A stretch of DNA of 64,000 nt from Hyphomonas chukchiensis (GTDB lineage Bacteria; Pseudomonadota; Alphaproteobacteria; Caulobacterales; Hyphomonadaceae): contig NZ_AWFG01000074.1 in the NCBI RefSeq assembly GCF_000682695.1, forward strand, positions 124,001 through 188,000. The letters are read 5' to 3'. How positions within the stretch are numbered: position 1 is the stretch's first letter; the number at the start of each line of letters is the position of its first letter. The notes beneath the pieces were generated by a model, which was given only the letters and a program-made list of their open reading frames with translations, was not told where the DNA came from and ran no database searches. This document shows, piece by piece, positions 40,993-47,611 of the stretch. Both the position numbers and the translations under genes were made by a program.

Positions 40993-41006
40993 TGATAGCG
41001 CAAACA
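40993..41006. promoter_or_regulatory. XylR-type operator between GH3-PA14 and TonB receptor genes
   Basis: TGATAGCGCAAACA matches TGATAGCGCTAACA except for one base. It lies in the 343-nt divergent region, 111 nt before the receptor start. This links the receptor and the downstream SapC-cupin-halogenase genes to the xylose repressor. Confidence 0.62.
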
Positions 41007-41116: not shown

Positions 41117-44100
41117 ATGACCTTTACCAAGGAACAAGTCGTGGTGCGTGATAAGCGCACCCCCAAGTGGACCGCCCTGCTCTGCGGCGTTTCCGCTGTG
41201 TCGCTCATCAGCGCCATGCCGGCATCGGCGCAGGAAGCAGCTGACGAAGAGTCCCGCCAGGAAGTCGTGGTGGTGCAGGGCATCCGTGGATCGCTCGAGC
41301 GCGCCATGGATCTCAAGCGCGAATCAAACGGCGTTCTCGACGCCATTTCGGCCGAAGACATCGGCAAATTCCCGGATACCAACCTTGCTGAATCCCTTCA
41401 GCGTATCACTGGCGTATCGATCGACCGGTCGAACGGTGAGGGCTCCAAGATCACGGTTCGTGGCTTCGGTCCGGACTTCAACCTGGTAACCCTGAATGGC
41501 CGCACGCTGCCCACGGCAGACATCGGCGTGATCGGCGAGCGCGGCAACTACGGAGCCGGCGGCGACCGTTCATTCGACTTCTCCAACCTGGCCTCTGAAG
41601 GCGTGAGCGCTCTGGAAGTCTACAAGACCGGCCAGGCTATCCTTCCATCGGGTGGCATCGGTGCGACGATCAATATCCGGACACGTCGTCCACTTGATAC
41701 ACCAGGCTTCCAGGCATCGGCCGGTGCCAAGGTGATGAATGATACAAGCAACGAAGGCGGTGATGACTATACGCCCGAATTGACGGGTCTCGCGAGCTGG
41801 ACCGACAATAGCGAGCGCTTTGGCGCGGGCATTTTTGGCTCCTATTCAAAACGCGATTCCGGCGCTCCAACACAGCAGGTCAATGACTGGCTCGTGTTCG
41901 ACCCAATTGTAGACGGAGAGTTCGGAGACAGCAGCTATGTGCGGGGGGACGGGTCTACTGTCGTCACCAACGCGCCCAAAGATGGCCAGCTCTACGCCAT
42001 CCCACAGGACAGCCGCTATGATTTCTCGGATATCTCCCGCGAGCGGATCAATGGTCAATTGGTCCTTCAATTCCGCCCGATGGATAACCTGACCCTGACA
42101 GGCGACGTCACTTACGCCCAGAACAAGTCGGAAGAAGACCGATTTGAGCAAACTAACTGGTTTGCAACACCATTCGACCAAATCACCTTTGACAATGATG
42201 GCCCCGTGGCAACGGCCGTTTTCCTCCAGGAAAACAATAACGGCACGAAGGACATTGGTTTCGAACAAACCAATCGCGCAACGAAGGACGAATTGAAATC
42301 GTTTGGCTTCAATGCGGAATGGGAATTCAGCGACCGCGCTCGTTTCATACTCGACGCACACAGTTCAGAAGCGACTTCAGGCGGCGATAACCCGCTCGGT
42401 CATTCGGCGACCTTCGTGGCAATCGGTGCGCCTGTTATCCTGCAGCACTCTGTCGACTTCACGGGCGGTTATCCAATCCAATCGTACACGATCGACGACA
42501 GTGCAGCTGGCAACAACAATGGCATTCTGGATGTAGGCGACCTTGCCTCGCAGGTCGCCCGCTCGGCGGCCTCGAACATGAAGCACGAAGTTGATGAAAT
42601 CGACATGCGCGTTGTCTGGGACTTTGATTCCAGCAGCCTGACCATCGGCGGGAACTATCGCGATACGGAAATGAACCGCACCACTCGCACAACTCAACAG
42701 GATCTCGGAAGCTGGGGCTTCAGCAATCCGCGCGATGTGGAACAGTTTGCACCGGGCATAATGGAAGCCTATTGCCTGGGATGTCTCTTTGATGACCTTC
42801 CTGTCGGCAAGGCGGATACAGCCTTCAAAGGAAGTGCAACGGATCTCTTTACAGCCCTTTCCGCAGCCTATCCTGGCAATGCTCCGAATATCTCGGAAAC
42901 TGCGGACCAGGTGACGGAAGAAATCACTTCCCTTTTCGCCCAGTTTGATATGGAAGCCGAACTGCTCAATCGCCCTGCACGTGTCAGTGCCGGCATCCGC
43001 TACGAAGACACGAAAGTGAAGTCGACAACACTGCAGTCAATTCCTTCGGGAATTTTGTGGCAGTCTGATAATGACTTCCTCGTGCAACAATCCGGCACCA
43101 AGCAGGACCTCTCCGGTGAGGGCAGCTATGACCACATTCTGCCCAACGTCGACTTCCAGCTTGATGTCACGGACGATATCGTTGCGCGTGCGTCCTATTC
43201 GAAAACGATCGGTCGCGTAGCTTACAGTAACCTGTTCGCCTCAACCACCGCGAACGCACCAAACCGTCCGTCGGCCCTTGGTGGCCAGGTGACAGGCGAC
43301 TCACAGAACCCGGCTCTCCTGCCACTGGAGTCCGACAACTTCGATGTGTCGCTTGAGTGGTACTATGGTGACACGAGCTATGTATCGATTGGCTATTTCG
43401 ACAAGCGCGTGAAGAACTTCATCGGTAACGGTGTTGTTGAGCGCAACCTGTTCGGTCTTCGCGATCCTGCATCTGGCCAGGCGGGAACACGTTCGGGTGA
43501 TGCTCTGGATGTGATCAGCGCACTTGGTGTTGACCAATCCGAGGCCAACCTGTTCACAATGGTTGCCCTGATCGACGCAAATGGTGGTGACGTGGCTGCT
43601 GCTCAGGCAGAGTTCCAGTCTAACCTGGTTGGCGGTGCGCTTCCACAGGCCTATGTGGACTCCATCCTCGGCCAGTATGATGTGACCGCAGATGCCAATG
43701 ACCCGCTCCTCACTTTTGCGGTGTCTCAGCCGATCAACAACAAGGAAGGCAATATCGACGGCATCGAGTTTGCCTGGCAGCACTTCTTTGGTGAGACCGG
43801 CTTTGGCTTCGCGGCCAACTACACGATGGTCAATGGCGACGTGGAGCTTGATCCGACTGCCTCTCCATACGAGAACCAGTTCGCGCTGGTTGGTCTCTCG
43901 GACTCTGCCAACTTCACGGCTATCTATGAGAAGTACGGATTGTCCGCACGTCTGGCCTATAACTGGCGGGACACCTTCCTCCAGGCCACGAACCAGGGCG
44001 GAGACCGGAGCGGTATTTATGTGGAAGACTTCGGCCAGTTCGACCTGAATGTCAGCTATGACATCAACGAACATGTCGCTGTATCCTTCGAGGCAATCAA

Positions 44101-44206
44101 TATTACCGGCGAAGACCAGCGGGTTTACCACCGCGTTCCGGAGCAGTTCTACTACTCCTATGAACTGTCTCCACGTTACCTGCTGGGCGCCCGCTACAAG
44201 TTCTAG
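41117..44206 (+). CDS. TonB-dependent receptor, carbohydrate type (xylan module)
   Basis: The product is 1029 aa from the ATG at 41117, preceded by GGGAGGAAGTCT. A signal peptide ends at MPASAQ (about residue 38). The TonB box and plug read EVVVVQGIRGSLERAMDLKRE, DAISAEDIGKFPDTNLAESLQRITGVSIDR, KITVRGFGPDFNLVTLNGRTLP and LEVYKTGQAILPSGGIGATINIRTRRP. This is the pattern of the Xanthomonas/Caulobacter-type TBDR subfamily linked to plant polysaccharides. The barrel ends YLLGARYKF with a terminal Phe. A strong terminator follows, so much of the transcription may stop before sapC. Uptake of xylo-oligosaccharides is inferred from the locus. Confidence 0.94.
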   Translation: MTFTKEQVVVRDKRTPKWTALLCGVSAVSLISAMPASAQEAADEESRQEVVVVQGIRGSLERAMDLKRESNGVLDAISAEDIGKFPDTNLAESLQRITGVSIDRSNGEGSKITVRGFGPDFNLVTLNGRTLPTADIGVIGERGNYGAGGDRSFDFSNLASEGVSALEVYKTGQAILPSGGIGATINIRTRRPLDTPGFQASAGAKVMNDTSNEGGDDYTPELTGLASWTDNSERFGAGIFGSYSKRDSGAPTQQVNDWLVFDPIVDGEFGDSSYVRGDGSTVVTNAPKDGQLYAIPQDSRYDFSDISRERINGQLVLQFRPMDNLTLTGDVTYAQNKSEEDRFEQTNWFATPFDQITFDNDGPVATAVFLQENNNGTKDIGFEQTNRATKDELKSFGFNAEWEFSDRARFILDAHSSEATSGGDNPLGHSATFVAIGAPVILQHSVDFTGGYPIQSYTIDDSAAGNNNGILDVGDLASQVARSAASNMKHEVDEIDMRVVWDFDSSSLTIGGNYRDTEMNRTTRTTQQDLGSWGFSNPRDVEQFAPGIMEAYCLGCLFDDLPVGKADTAFKGSATDLFTALSAAYPGNAPNISETADQVTEEITSLFAQFDMEAELLNRPARVSAGIRYEDTKVKSTTLQSIPSGILWQSDNDFLVQQSGTKQDLSGEGSYDHILPNVDFQLDVTDDIVARASYSKTIGRVAYSNLFASTTANAPNRPSALGGQVTGDSQNPALLPLESDNFDVSLEWYYGDTSYVSIGYFDKRVKNFIGNGVVERNLFGLRDPASGQAGTRSGDALDVISALGVDQSEANLFTMVALIDANGGDVAAAQAEFQSNLVGGALPQAYVDSILGQYDVTADANDPLLTFAVSQPINNKEGNIDGIEFAWQHFFGETGFGFAANYTMVNGDVELDPTASPYENQFALVGLSDSANFTAIYEKYGLSARLAYNWRDTFLQATNQGGDRSGIYVEDFGQFDLNVSYDINEHVAVSFEAINITGEDQRVYHRVPEQFYYSYELSPRYLLGARYKF

Positions 44207-44240
44207 CGGTCGACAGACAGAGACTGTTGGGGATAAATTG

Positions 44241-44271
44241 AAAAAGGCCGCTCTTCGCAGCGGCCTTTTTT
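44241..44271 (+). terminator. Rho-independent terminator after the TonB receptor
   Basis: AAAAAGGCCGCT and AGCGGCCTTTTT form a perfect 12-bp stem with a 6-nt loop, ending in six T. It lies 35 nt after the receptor stop and only 33 nt before sapC. It could therefore act as an attenuator that lowers expression of the downstream cassette relative to the receptor. Confidence 0.85.
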
Positions 44272-44303
44272 GCCCGACCGGACCACCCACCAAGAGGCGC
44301 AGC

Positions 44304-45035
44304 ATGACCAATATGGCTTTGCTCAACAATGTAGAGCACCACGACCTGAAGGTGATCGCAGGTCACGGCCCGGAATATGGCGACAGCATTAACCTGACGA
44401 CCATCTTCCCGACTGAGTTTGCCGAAGCCCAGCGGGACTATCCGATATTGTTCCGCAAGGATGAGAATGGCCAATACGGTGCAGTCGCATTACTCGGCCT
44501 GGACAAGGGTGAAAACCTGTTCCTGACGAATGAAGGCTGGCAGGGGCGCTACATTCCCGCCATTCACCAGCGCGGCCCCTTCGTAATTGGTCGGCAGAAC
44601 CAGGTCATCGACGGCGAAACCCGACAGGAGCCCGTGATCTTCGTTGATCTCGAGGACAGCCGCGTGAACCGATCCGAGGGCCACCCGCTCTTCCTTAGAC
44701 ATGGCGGCAATTCACCCTATCTGCAGCATGTGAGCCATGTGCTCAGGATCATCAACAAAGGGGCAGAAGTTGCGCGGCCCATGTTTGCGGCATTCGAGGC
44801 TGCAGACCTCATTGAGCCTGCATCCCTTGAAATCCGGATAGACGAGCACACAGTCTATCAGGTGCCTGATATGTATTCCATAAATGAACAGAAGCTCGCC
44901 GCGCTCGACGGGCAGGTCCTGGAGAGCCTCCATAAATCCGGCTTTCTCCGCGCCGCTTACCTGGTTCTCGCATCCCTTCCCAATGTCCGCAGGCTGATCG
45001 CACTCAAGAATGCAAAGCGCGCAGAGAATGCCTAG
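44304..45035 (+). CDS. SapC-family protein
   Basis: The 243-aa soluble protein is recognised by the SapC blocks near the N-terminus (DLKVIAGHGPEYGDSINLTTIFPTEFAEAQRDYPILFRKDENGQYGAVALLGLDKGENLFL) and by GRYIPAIHQRGPFVIG. The family was named after a Campylobacter surface-layer-linked gene, but its biochemical function is not established. In alphaproteobacterial and gammaproteobacterial polysaccharide loci it often follows a TBDR and precedes cupin and halogenase-like genes, as here. No signal peptide is visible. It is separated from the receptor by the terminator and is followed by the cupin gene after 27 nt. Confidence 0.88.
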   Translation: MTNMALLNNVEHHDLKVIAGHGPEYGDSINLTTIFPTEFAEAQRDYPILFRKDENGQYGAVALLGLDKGENLFLTNEGWQGRYIPAIHQRGPFVIGRQNQVIDGETRQEPVIFVDLEDSRVNRSEGHPLFLRHGGNSPYLQHVSHVLRIINKGAEVARPMFAAFEAADLIEPASLEIRIDEHTVYQVPDMYSINEQKLAALDGQVLESLHKSGFLRAAYLVLASLPNVRRLIALKNAKRAENA

Positions 45036-45062
45036 TCTTTCGCGGAAATACAGTAGCTTATC

Positions 45063-46094
45063 ATGGTCGATATAGAGCGAAAGACACGCGTCCTGGAAGG
45101 CATCTCAGTGGATGCCATTCCATATGAAAGGCTCATGCGTGAAGAGCAGCCTACAATACTGAAAGGTGTTGCCAGAGACTGGCCGCTGACCATCAAGGGC
45201 ATTGAATCACCTGAAGCAGCCATGGACTATATTTCAGGGTTCTATCAAGGTCGGCCGGTTGTCGGATATACGTGCGCTCCGCACCTGAACGGGCGGTATT
45301 TCTATAATGACGATATCTCCGGATTGAACTTCCAGCGCCAACGCGTTCCGCTGGGTGACTTCCTTGATCTTATGCGAAATGAATTGGGGCGGCCTGATTC
45401 CCCCTCGTATTATATCGGATCAACGGATGCTGATTTGTATTTTCCCGGCTTTCGTGACGATAATAATCTGATCCTGAATCACCCCATGTTCGAACACAAC
45501 TCACCCATCGTGAGTCTCTGGATCGGTAATCGCACGACCGCCACGGCGCACTATGACATGTCCAATAATATCGCCTGCTGCATCGTGGGCACGAGACGGT
45601 TCACGCTTTTTCCGCCGGAACAGATCGCCAATCTCTATCCAGGACCATTGGAGCCCACGCCTGGTGGACAGGTCGTCAGCATGGTTGATTTCCAGAACCC
45701 CGATTTTGAGCAACACCCGCGATTTAAAGAGGCCCTGGAGGCCGCAGAGGTGGCTGAACTTGAGCCGGGTGACGCGCTTTTCTACCCTGCCCTCTGGTGG
45801 CATCATGTCGAGGCGCTGAGCGACTTCAATACGCTGGTGAATTACTGGTGGAATACATCGCCGGGATATATCGACACTCCCCAGAATACCCTTCTTCACG
45901 GCCTGCTCAGTTTGCGCGATCGCCCTGAACAGGAGAAGCGCGCGTGGAAGGCGCTCTTTGATTATTACGTATTCGGACCCGCTGAAATTCCGGGAGCCCA
46001 TCTGCCAGAACATGCCAAAGGTGACCTGGCACCGATGGATGAGCCTCGTGCGCGCCGGCTGCGGGCGAAATTGCTTCAACGTCTGAACCGTTGA
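45063..46094 (+). CDS. Cupin_8/JmjC-like Fe(II)/2-oxoglutarate dioxygenase-type protein
   Basis: The 343-aa protein has the cupin_8 layout: an N-terminal REEQPTILKGVARDWP segment, SLWIGNRTTATAHYDMSNNIACCIVG with the HxD metal pair (His163, Asp165), RRFTLFPPEQ, and the distal metal His in YPALWWHHVEAL (His247 or His248). Such proteins hydroxylate amino-acid side chains of proteins or small molecules. The start ATG has no strong ribosome-binding site, and translation may be coupled to sapC. It lies between sapC and the halogenase-like gene, suggesting a shared, probably protein-modifying, task that is not known. Cytoplasmic by absence of a signal. Confidence 0.86.
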   Translation: MVDIERKTRVLEGISVDAIPYERLMREEQPTILKGVARDWPLTIKGIESPEAAMDYISGFYQGRPVVGYTCAPHLNGRYFYNDDISGLNFQRQRVPLGDFLDLMRNELGRPDSPSYYIGSTDADLYFPGFRDDNNLILNHPMFEHNSPIVSLWIGNRTTATAHYDMSNNIACCIVGTRRFTLFPPEQIANLYPGPLEPTPGGQVVSMVDFQNPDFEQHPRFKEALEAAEVAELEPGDALFYPALWWHHVEALSDFNTLVNYWWNTSPGYIDTPQNTLLHGLLSLRDRPEQEKRAWKALFDYYVFGPAEIPGAHLPEHAKGDLAPMDEPRARRLRAKLLQRLNR

Positions 46095-46117
46095 CCAGAT
46101 CTGACAGGGAGACATAC

Positions 46118-47611
46118 GTGGACGGACAGACTGTAAAGAAAGTGGTTATTGCAGGTGGCGGCACAGCAGGCTGGATCGTGGCAGCCGCCCTATCACGTCA
46201 GCTTGGCCCCCTCATCGACATTACGCTTGTAGAGTCAGACGAGATCGGGACGGTTGGCGTGGGTGAAGCAACCATTCCGACACACCGCATATTTCACCAT
46301 CTTCTTGGCGTGGACGAGCGAGCCTTCATGCGCGCCACAAAAGCGACGTTCAAGCTCGGCATCGCATTCGAGAACTGGGGCCAGATTGGTGACCGCTATA
46401 TCCACTCGTTCGGCGTCGTCGGGAAGTCGACATGGATGGCGGACTTTCATCACATCTGGATGCAGGCCCGGGAGATGGGCCTGGCGAGCGAACTTGGAGA
46501 TTATTGTTTCGAACTTAAAGCCGCAGAGGCCAACAAGTTCGCGACCTCCGACACATCGCAGATCAATTATGCCTATCATCTCGATGCGAGCCTCTATGCG
46601 GGGTTTCTGCGCCAATTTGCGGAATCCTTTGGCGCTCGCCGCGTCGAGGGCCTGATTGAAGCCGTCGAGCAGAACCCGGAAACAGGTTTCATTACAGTGC
46701 TCGTGCTCAAATCTGGCGAACGTATTGAAGGCGACTTGTTTATCGACTGCACGGGCTTCCGGGCGCTTCTGATAGATAAAACCTTGAACACCGGATTTAC
46801 GGACTGGTCTCACTGGCTGCCGACAGATCGCGCGATCGCCGTGCAAACCAAGGCGACGGGACCAGCCCTGCCCTATACCCGCGCCATCGCACATGATGCT
46901 GGCTGGCGTTGGAAAATCCCGCTTCAACACCGTGTCGGAAATGGTCTCGTGTATTCCAGCGCCCATCTGTCGGATGATGAGGCCCGCTCACGCCTGCTGG
47001 CAGAGATTGATGGCGAACCGCTCACGGATCCCCGTATCATCCGGTATCGAACCGGCCGCCGCGAGAAAGTCTGGGTCAAGAATTGCATATCGATCGGGCT
47101 TTCGAGTGGCTTTGTCGAGCCACTTGAGTCGACCTCGATTCATCTGATCCAGATTTATGCCTCGCGGCTGGTCCAGATGTTCCCGTTCAATGGATTCAGC
47201 GACGCGCTGGCGACGCGGTTCAATGACATGGCACGAGTGGAGCTAGAACGAATACGCGACTTCATCGTTCTGCACTATAAGCTGACCGAGCGCACGGACA
47301 GTGACTTCTGGAAAATGATGGGCGCCATGAACATACCGGACACCTTGCGCAACCGGATTGACCTCTTCCGCGATACCGGACTGGCCTACCAGGAAAAAGC
47401 CGAACTCTTCCAGGTGGATTCCTGGCTGCAGGTGATGATGGGGCAGCGACTGCACCCACAGGGACGCCACCACCTCGGTCGTCTGATGTCAGAAGACCAA
47501 ATCAAAATGGCGCTCAATGGCCTGCGTACGAACATTGCCAATGCAGTTGCCCGATTGCCGGTTCATCAGGATTTCCTCGACCAGTATATGCGTGAGCCTG
47601 AGTTGTCCTGA
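46118..47611 (+). CDS. Tryptophan halogenase-family flavoprotein
   Basis: The product is 497 aa from the GTG at 46118, with AGGGAGA 5 nt upstream; a TTG nine codons earlier has no such site. The flavin-dependent halogenase signatures are intact: GGGTAGW (13-19), VGVGEATIP, the catalytic-type Lys79 (ATFKLGIAFENW), WRWKIP (263-268) and VEPLEST with Glu337. It would need FADH2 from a separate reductase, and none is nearby. No tryptophan or natural-product biosynthesis gene surrounds it. The association with a TBDR, SapC and a cupin is shared by a large, poorly understood branch of the family, some members of which are reported to halogenate free indoles. The native substrate here is unknown. Confidence 0.9.
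   Translation: MDGQTVKKVVIAGGGTAGWIVAAALSRQLGPLIDITLVESDEIGTVGVGEATIPTHRIFHHLLGVDERAFMRATKATFKLGIAFENWGQIGDRYIHSFGVVGKSTWMADFHHIWMQAREMGLASELGDYCFELKAAEANKFATSDTSQINYAYHLDASLYAGFLRQFAESFGARRVEGLIEAVEQNPETGFITVLVLKSGERIEGDLFIDCTGFRALLIDKTLNTGFTDWSHWLPTDRAIAVQTKATGPALPYTRAIAHDAGWRWKIPLQHRVGNGLVYSSAHLSDDEARSRLLAEIDGEPLTDPRIIRYRTGRREKVWVKNCISIGLSSGFVEPLESTSIHLIQIYASRLVQMFPFNGFSDALATRFNDMARVELERIRDFIVLHYKLTERTDSDFWKMMGAMNIPDTLRNRIDLFRDTGLAYQEKAELFQVDSWLQVMMGQRLHPQGRHHLGRLMSEDQIKMALNGLRTNIANAVARLPVHQDFLDQYMREPELS

What the first reader, a model, noticed from the sequence alone, without database searches (positions are those of the whole stretch)
41117..47611. TBDR-SapC-cupin_8-tryptophan halogenase-like cassette embedded in a xylan locus
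Seen: a carbohydrate-type TBDR, then SapC, a cupin with intact HxD...H, and a halogenase-family flavoprotein with Lys79, WRWKIP and EPLEST intact, in order and on one strand, beside a XylR-type box. Known: such genes recur near TBDRs in Proteobacteria, and related enzymes can halogenate indoles in vitro. Inference: in a sugar-uptake locus with no indole pathway, the three proteins may modify an amino-acid side chain of the receptor or a surface protein, or oxidise a sugar-linked compound. This would be a modification system whose native substrate has not been described.
Basis: partly seen in the sequence, partly recalled or inferred. Interest (0 to 1): 0.78.

Follow-up and report, generated by a model that had tools for sequence, protein, structure and literature searches.

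The report
Halogenase cassette tied to sugar receptor
Next to a gene for an outer-membrane sugar receptor sit three genes for enzymes or helpers that travel with this kind of receptor across many bacteria, which makes the receptor itself the likeliest thing they chemically modify, although no modification has yet been shown.

Summary
In detail: a TIGR01782 TonB-dependent receptor (TBDR), SapC, a cupin_8 oxygenase with intact HxD...H and a BrvH/Xcc4156-type flavin halogenase with intact Lys79 lie on one strand in a xylan locus. It is not chance: in 12 genomes 72 of 96 halogenases, 24 of 35 SapC and 29 of 31 cupin_8 genes lie within 6 kb of such a TBDR, about 4.5, 1.5 and 1.5 being expected. Of 41 receptors beside all three genes, 38 fall in one clade. 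Neighbouring enzymes differ (xylan, cellulose, starch, chitin types), which speaks against a xylan-specific substrate. The cupin's nearest solved relatives are protein hydroxylases. Best reading: the enzymes modify the receptor precursor before export (inferred, about 0.45). A candidate site is Trp533-Gly534: a Trp-Gly in those loops marks 62 of 72 receptors with a type-A halogenase, 7 of 48 without satellites, and 33 of 37 in a second set without controls. My sharper prediction, one Trp-Gly loop per extra halogenase, failed. The published open question of native substrate becomes testable.

The parts
40993..41006 (+). LacI/XylR-type operator-like box (TGATAGCGCAAACA) upstream of the TBDR
   Evidence: 2 mismatches to a recalled consensus; 5 such sites in the window, 1.18 expected
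41117..44206 (+). TonB-dependent receptor, TIGR01782 (TonB-Xanth-Caul) family, 1029 aa, with a hydrophobic N-terminal stretch as in a signal peptide
   Evidence: 669.6 bits; fold model; Foldseek top hit FecA; hydropathy
42713..42718 (+). codons of Trp533-Gly534, candidate modified site in a loop that is probably on the outer face
   Evidence: Trp in 41 of 41 and Gly in 37 of 41 receptors of the cassette clade; WG statistics; loop placement from model, low local confidence
44241..44271 (+). terminator-like hairpin with T run between TBDR and SapC
   Evidence: similar element in 16 of 30 TBDR-SapC gaps; the consensus scan listed a hairpin here only on the - strand
44304..45035 (+). SapC (PF07277), 243 aa, cassette subtype
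   Evidence: 229 bits; no PDB relative by sequence (two hits at E 0.83 only) or by fold (weak model)
45063..46094 (+). Cupin_8 / JmjC-like Fe(II)-2OG oxygenase, 343 aa, HxD...H intact
   Evidence: nearest solved relatives FIH 4e-21 and JMJD5 1e-15; triad in 51 of 52 sequences, window included
46118..47611 (+). flavin-dependent halogenase of the BrvH/Xcc4156 kind, 497 aa, GTG start, Lys79 and Glu337 intact
   Evidence: PDB 6y1w 3.6e-170, 9luq 8.6e-164, 6frl 2.4e-142; Lys in 136 of 140, Glu in 138 of 140 sequences, window included

Best explanation
The cassette is a maturation set for a subfamily of sugar-type outer-membrane receptors. The receptor is transcribed at a high level; the terminator-like hairpin behind it lets a smaller amount of SapC, cupin_8 oxygenase and halogenase be made from the same operon. 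SapC and cupin lack a hydrophobic N-terminal stretch, and the one in the halogenase is its FAD-binding fold, so they would act in the cytoplasm on the receptor precursor before or during Sec export. The flavin enzyme would halogenate or hydroxylate a Trp, and the FIH-like oxygenase would hydroxylate another side chain. SapC would hold the unfolded precursor or present the site. The altered loop residues would then sit on the cell surface and tune sugar binding, loop stability or resistance to phages and toxins that use the receptor. Shown: gene identity, intact catalytic residues, clustering with one TBDR family, tracking of one TBDR clade, varied sugar neighbours. Inferred: the receptor is the substrate, the cytoplasmic site, the roles of SapC and the hairpin. 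Only suggested: Trp533-Gly534 as a target.
For: Clustering in 12 genomes: 72/96 halogenases, 24/35 SapC and 29/31 cupin_8 within 6 kb of a listed TIGR01782 TBDR, against 4.5, 1.5 and 1.5 expected (the TBDR table was cut at about 150 rows, so these are lower bounds). A TBDR in 73 of 85 halogenase neighbourhoods (84 fetched plus the window), often in the same gene order. Tracking: a clade of 41 receptors (38 full cassette, 2 halogenase only, 1 none; local support 0.993) holds 38 of the 41 receptors so labelled; 7 label changes against a mean of 35.5 in 500 shuffles, minimum 25. Catalytic residues conserved. Cupin nearest FIH and JMJD5, known protein hydroxylases. A weak, below-cut-off match of the halogenase to QhpG, which dihydroxylates a Trp inside a protein in the cytoplasm before export (PMC7876137, passages read). 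Xcc4156 has an open active site for substrates 'possibly even peptides', and the native substrates of it and BrvH are unknown (PMC7336383, PMC5945002, passages read). Varied sugar neighbours: GH3, GH30, GH67, GH9, alpha-amylase, GH20 (one representative annotated per cluster). WG motif in loops 440-560: 62/72 with type A, 7/48 without satellites, 2/15 type-B-only, 2/3 unassigned; 33/37 in a second set. Phylogeny-aware test LR 18.5, nominal p 0.001.
Against: No modification has been observed. The prediction that a second WG loop follows a second halogenase failed: 6/9 against 2/4, then 7/10 against 7/10. WG follows receptor clades, and the phylogeny-aware signal is only just ahead of unrelated dipeptides (WG 18.5, PQ 17.4, GN 16.7). 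Loop Trp could simply stack on sugars. A quarter of the halogenases (24 of 96) are not within 6 kb of a listed TBDR, and divergent solo SapC genes stand away from halogenase and cupin. About two thirds of the listed TIGR01782 receptors have no halogenase within 6 kb (51 of 150 do). Three receptors labelled with the full set lie outside the clade, and one receptor inside it has no satellite. The three genus-mates in the sample have no halogenase match, so the module is dispensable. Acting on a Sec substrate in the cytoplasm is a kinetic problem. No signal-peptide predictor was run.
Confidence: 0.45

Rival explanations
1. The enzymes act on a small molecule taken up through the receptor, such as an aromatic compound bound to plant oligosaccharides (feruloyl groups) or an indole or phenol, to detoxify or use it.
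For: In vitro, BrvH and Xcc4156 act on free indole but not on free Trp (PMC5945002, PMC7336383, passages read); operon with a transporter and, in this window, xylanases.
Against: Halogenases sit beside receptors with alpha-amylase and GH20 neighbours, whose polymers carry no aromatic groups (established knowledge), as well as GH9, GH67 and GH30. BrvH activity on indole is low. None of the 10 neighbour-cluster representatives annotated is an aromatic-degradation gene.
Confidence: 0.2
2. The substrate is another protein or peptide that works with the receptor (a secreted peptide, a surface lipoprotein, or a TonB-type partner), not the receptor itself.
For: Peptide substrates proposed for Xcc4156; SapC is named after a Campylobacter surface-layer gene (recalled); all components could act on any exported polypeptide.
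Against: Besides the four families, only a LacI regulator (43 of 105 loci) and GH3 (35 of 105) recur widely; the next cluster is in 9 loci. No small exported protein was seen to recur, but ORFs under 100 aa were not examined.
Confidence: 0.2
3. The genes are only co-regulated passengers: they share the sugar regulon and do housekeeping oxidation unrelated to the receptor.
For: LacI-type boxes and a LacI gene in 43 of 105 loci; patchy presence, no halogenase match in three genus-mates.
Against: Order TBDR-SapC-cupin-halogenase shared by the window and Pseudoxanthomonas and Lysobacter genomes, and tracking of one TBDR clade; catalytic residues kept.
Confidence: 0.12

Closest known systems
BrvH and Xcc4156 flavin-dependent halogenases (PDB 6frl, 6y1w)
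   Same: Same subfamily by sequence (E 2.4e-142 and 3.6e-170), same catalytic Lys and Glu; native substrates unknown; peptide substrates already suggested in print.
   Different: The main texts have no occurrence of 'receptor' (BrvH paper) or 'TonB' (Xcc4156 paper); here the gene set and a receptor clade are tied together.
QhpG peptidyl-Trp dihydroxylase in the qhp operon (PMC7876137)
   Same: A flavoprotein encoded beside its protein substrate, oxidising a Trp in the cytoplasm before export (passages read).
   Different: The window protein scores 27.6 bits against a QhpG cut-off of 240 and has the halogenase Lys; the cassette itself holds no radical-SAM enzyme or protease gene.
FIH (factor inhibiting HIF) and JMJD5 protein hydroxylases
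   Same: Nearest solved relatives of the cupin (4e-21, 1e-15), HxD...H triad.
   Different: The match covers about 110 residues of the catalytic core; by eye, the FIH 2OG-binding Lys (recalled) is Arg178 here.
Carbohydrate-utilisation TBDR (CUT) loci of Xanthomonas (PMC1790865)
   Same: TBDR and sugar-degrading genes for plant sugars (passages read).
   Different: That paper's main text has no occurrence of halogenase, SapC or cupin.

Membership tests
Flavin-dependent halogenase (PF04820), BrvH/Xcc4156 subgroup | Pfam match over cut-off, FAD motif, WxWxIP, catalytic Lys and Glu | tested here: met
   629 bits; GxGxxG, W263-x-W265, K79, E337 in an alignment of 140 sequences; nearest PDB 6y1w
Flavin-dependent halogenase (PF04820), BrvH/Xcc4156 subgroup | halogenates an aromatic substrate | not testable with these tools
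   needs the enzyme
Free-tryptophan halogenase | residues and lid loops that bind free Trp | not tested
   the absence is reported for Xcc4156 and BrvH; loop lengths not measured here
TIGR01782 TonB-dependent receptor | score above the curated cut-off over full length | tested here: met
   669.6 against 310 bits, model positions 4-868 of 868
FIH/JMJD5-type protein hydroxylase | Fe-binding HxD...H | tested here: met
   H163, D165, H247; 51 of 52 sequences, the other a gap
FIH/JMJD5-type protein hydroxylase | 2-oxoglutarate-binding Lys | tested here: inconclusive
   Arg178 at that place by eye, FIH sequence recalled; Arg178 kept in at least 95% of 52 sequences
FIH/JMJD5-type protein hydroxylase | hydroxylates a protein side chain | not testable with these tools
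   needs the enzyme
SapC as surface-layer protein | exported to the cell surface | tested here: inconclusive
   PF07277 met, but no hydrophobic N-terminal stretch (0.3 against 1.85 for the TBDR); no signal-peptide predictor was run
QhpG | score above the curated cut-off | tested here: not met
   27.6 against 240 bits

The most novel reading that the evidence does not exclude
A dedicated enzyme set halogenates or hydroxylates a tryptophan in a Trp-Gly motif of an outer loop of sugar receptors (Trp533 here) before export, and the FIH-like cupin and, in some loci, a DUF6445 oxygenase modify further residues. This would be a post-translational maturation system for TonB-dependent receptors and the native substrate of the BrvH/Xcc4156 halogenases.
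Probability: 0.2. Interest if true: 0.88.

Novelty: new variant of a known kind. Interest (0 to 1): 0.66.

Why it matters
Papers on these halogenases say that the native substrate is unknown (passages read). The gene neighbourhood points to one receptor subfamily as the substrate and names residues to look at, so a single mass-spectrometry experiment can settle it.

Tried and rejected
One WG loop per halogenase: in the first set a WG in the loop at residues 240-300 went with a second, type-B halogenase (16 of 17 with, 3 of 24 without; first by eye, recounted). I fixed the prediction in the notebook before fetching more. It failed in round 1 (6/9 against 2/4, p 1.0) and in round 2 (7/10 against 7/10). 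Rejected. In round 1 three of the 9 B+ rows had either no Trp in the loop (L285) or the B gene outside the TBDR-SapC slot (L260, L272); they were kept in the count. Four further loci fetched, with TBDR-cupin distances too short for a type-B gene, had WG in 1 of 4 and are not in the 7/10; with them the B- count is 8/14, still no support.

A single residue shared by the halogenase-associated receptor groups: only Arg1020 came near, at 0.94 or more in five of six groups (0.18 in the sixth, 0.26 without satellites); not pursued, because it lies in the C-terminal strand.

SapC function by fold: the AlphaFold model was weak (mean pLDDT 64) and no PDB chain matched at E 0.001 or better.

Solo SapC context: neighbours differ between loci (DUF885, DsbD, FAD oxidase, sigma factor, in L253 a TBDR that is not in my TIGR01782 table), so no common hint.

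A first gene-calling pass by longest ORF lost the halogenase in 18 of 85 loci and was replaced by six-frame ORFs. A loop regex failed in 16 of 20 rows and was replaced by alignment; one search is the one that counts.

A literature link between SapC or a TBDR and these halogenases: searches showed none in the open-access library (search listings only).

Rows dropped: TBDR frames under 780 aa, ten duplicate loci and identical repeats; 3 near-identical and 1 internal duplicate. Three TBDRs whose halogenase was cut at the locus end (L171, L177, L192) were counted as 'other' or type-B-only and set to type A by hand. Of the 48 receptors 'without satellites', 17 rested at first on short flanks or on the 6 kb limit; for 14 of them the 12-genome table shows no satellite within 6 kb (one halogenase at 8.6 kb).
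Full report
The window lies in an assembly of 3.86 Mb (G000); the closest named relative found is a contig titled 'Alphaproteobacteria bacterium' (halogenase 91% identical). They follow a xylan locus (GH3, GH115, GH43, GH10, LacI regulator, FGGY kinase, SASA esterase, GH3) with several LacI-type boxes, one of them upstream of the receptor.

The own genome holds one halogenase that covers the family model (a second match covers model positions 1-62 only), one cupin_8 that covers its model (a second is a partial match of 32 bits), two SapC and three full-length TIGR01782 receptors over cut-off. Three genus-mates in the phylum sample have no halogenase match; 73 of 397 phylum genomes have one at E 1e-20 or better.

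Is the set more than chance? I took 12 genomes that carry it and located the four families. Within 6 kb of a listed TIGR01782 receptor lie 72 of 96 halogenases, 24 of 35 SapC and 29 of 31 cupin_8, against 4.5, 1.5 and 1.5 expected from the share of genome covered. The receptor table was cut at about 150 rows, so these counts are lower bounds. The 12 genomes were chosen because they have the halogenase, so this measures location, not frequency. Eleven of the 35 SapC genes have no listed TBDR within 6 kb; the eight solo copies whose neighbourhoods I read (two from the window's genus) have no halogenase, cupin or TIGR01782-type receptor nearby, though one, L253, lies beside another kind of TBDR.

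In 85 neighbourhoods (84 fetched by halogenase similarity, plus the window) a TBDR is present in 73, SapC in 41 and cupin_8 in 45. The named Sphingomonas and Robiginitomaculum loci show a TBDR with halogenases and mostly a cupin, without SapC. Variants are TBDR-halogenase, TBDR-halogenase-SapC and TBDR-halogenase-SapC-cupin-halogenase. The first halogenase of the last form belongs to a separate clade of 45 of 140 sequences (support 0.999), here called type B.

Tracking: in a tree of 138 receptors, 38 of the 41 that have SapC, cupin and halogenase within 6 kb fall in one clade of 41; its other three members have a halogenase only (2) or no satellite (1); local support 0.993. Of the three outside, one is a second receptor near a cassette and two have other arrangements. 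The cassette label changes 7 times against 35.5 on average in 500 shuffles (minimum 25); for SapC, cupin and halogenase labels it is 10, 12 and 15 against 40-41. The shuffles ignore that neighbours in the tree share ancestry, so this says that the genes travel with the receptor lineage, not that each gain is independent.

The enzymes look active: the catalytic Lys is kept in 136 of 140 halogenases and Glu337 in 138, and HxD...H in 51 of 52 cupins, window included. The cupin's nearest solved relatives are FIH and JMJD5, both known protein side-chain hydroxylases (established knowledge). The halogenase's are Xcc4156, 9luq and BrvH. Its weak match to QhpG is a lead only; it fails that family's cut-off. 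QhpG shows that a flavoprotein can dihydroxylate a Trp of a protein in the cytoplasm before export (passages of PMC7876137). On location: SapC and cupin have no hydrophobic stretch in their first 60 residues (0.30 and 0.39); the halogenase has one as strong as the receptor's (1.84 against 1.85), but at residues 9-25, which hold the FAD-binding GGGTAGW. No signal-peptide predictor was run.

A fourth satellite appeared: DUF6445 in 9 of 105 loci. In 7 of the 9 it is the next gene on the same strand behind a halogenase or SapC; in 2 it adjoins a halogenase on the other strand. Its invariant residues include PHxD, GGTxFxRH, HS and RL (9 sequences), the pattern of a 2-oxoglutarate Fe(II) oxygenase (motif recalled).

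The sugar differs between loci. Recurrent neighbours among 105 loci are LacI (43), GH3 (35), GH30, GH67, GH9 and alpha-amylase (7 each) and GH20 (6) (one representative per cluster annotated; the 105 include the solo-SapC loci and some overlaps). Most amylase and GH20 loci have a halogenase and TBDR but not the full four-gene set. Starch- and chitin-type neighbours make a plant-aromatic substrate unlikely as the general answer.

Candidate site: in the receptor model (mean pLDDT 69; Foldseek best FecA) Trp533 sits at the start of a long loop, by strand lengths an outer one; local confidence there is low (about 50-56). Trp533 is kept in 41 of 41 cassette-clade receptors and Gly534 in 37, although the loop around them varies. 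A Trp-Gly anywhere in the stretch aligned to 440-560 is found in 62 of 72 receptors with a type-A halogenase within 6 kb, 7 of 48 without satellites, 2 of 15 with type B only and 2 of 3 unassigned. In a second set, fetched after the prediction was written down, it is 33 of 37, all with type A, so without negative controls. A correlated-evolution test on 175 receptors gives LR 18.5, nominal p 0.001. Among 218 dipeptides WG differs most (0.88 against 0.13; the next difference is 0.30) and has the highest LR of the 83 tested, but PQ (17.4) and GN (16.7) are close. The stretch was chosen after looking at the first set. I treat this as suggestive, with sugar stacking as the rival.

The stronger prediction, that a second WG loop follows a second halogenase, failed in both validation rounds. 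This lowers the case for Trp-Gly as the halogenase target; it does not bear on the gene linkage.

A terminator-like hairpin between receptor and SapC, found in 16 of 30 such gaps, would fit a receptor made in excess over enzymes that act on it. The consensus scan did not list it on the + strand, and the fold of the whole gap is not unusual against shuffles (z -1.42), so this is an inference.

Prior work, as far as the open-access library shows: BrvH and Xcc4156 papers state an unknown native substrate and suggest peptides (passages). A genome survey of halogenases has no occurrence of TonB, SapC or cupin in its main text, nor does the CUT-locus paper have halogenase, SapC or cupin. Searches for the combination listed nothing relevant. 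Subscription journals are mostly outside this library, so the link may exist in print elsewhere.

Noticed in passing
L114:10741-11511, L118:8987-9691, L119:8607-9356, L126:11021-11734, L131:8344-9027, L243:2977-3711, L247:6759-7478 (same strand); L101:11549-12217, L144:13396-14064 (other strand): DUF6445 (PF20043), with an HxD...H...R pattern like 2-oxoglutarate oxygenases, adjoins a halogenase or SapC of these loci; a likely fourth satellite of the receptors.
   Followed up: partly
G000:C28:5853-6521 (L250) and SapC hits: A divergent solo SapC is common: 42 of 192 class genomes have a SapC match, including genomes of 1.4-2 Mb; the solo copies read lie away from halogenase and cupin, with no common neighbour theme.
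   Followed up: partly
L258, L144, L297: Some loci hold three or four halogenase-family frames in a row, one of them often with a weak or short match, with or without a receptor nearby.
   Followed up: no
G724:C12, G679:C413: TBDR and cupin_8 matches are under 200 bp apart, leaving no room for SapC between them; a possible cassette form with SapC lost or elsewhere.
   Followed up: no
window 23492, 28309, 32283, 32495, 40993: Five LacI-type boxes; four end 6-110 bp before the ORF starts of GH115, GH10, the FGGY kinase and the TBDR; probably one xylan regulon.
   Followed up: partly
G000:C74:190347-190826, just outside the window: A C-terminal fragment of a TIGR01782 receptor (194-aa open frame), perhaps a decayed copy.
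   Followed up: no
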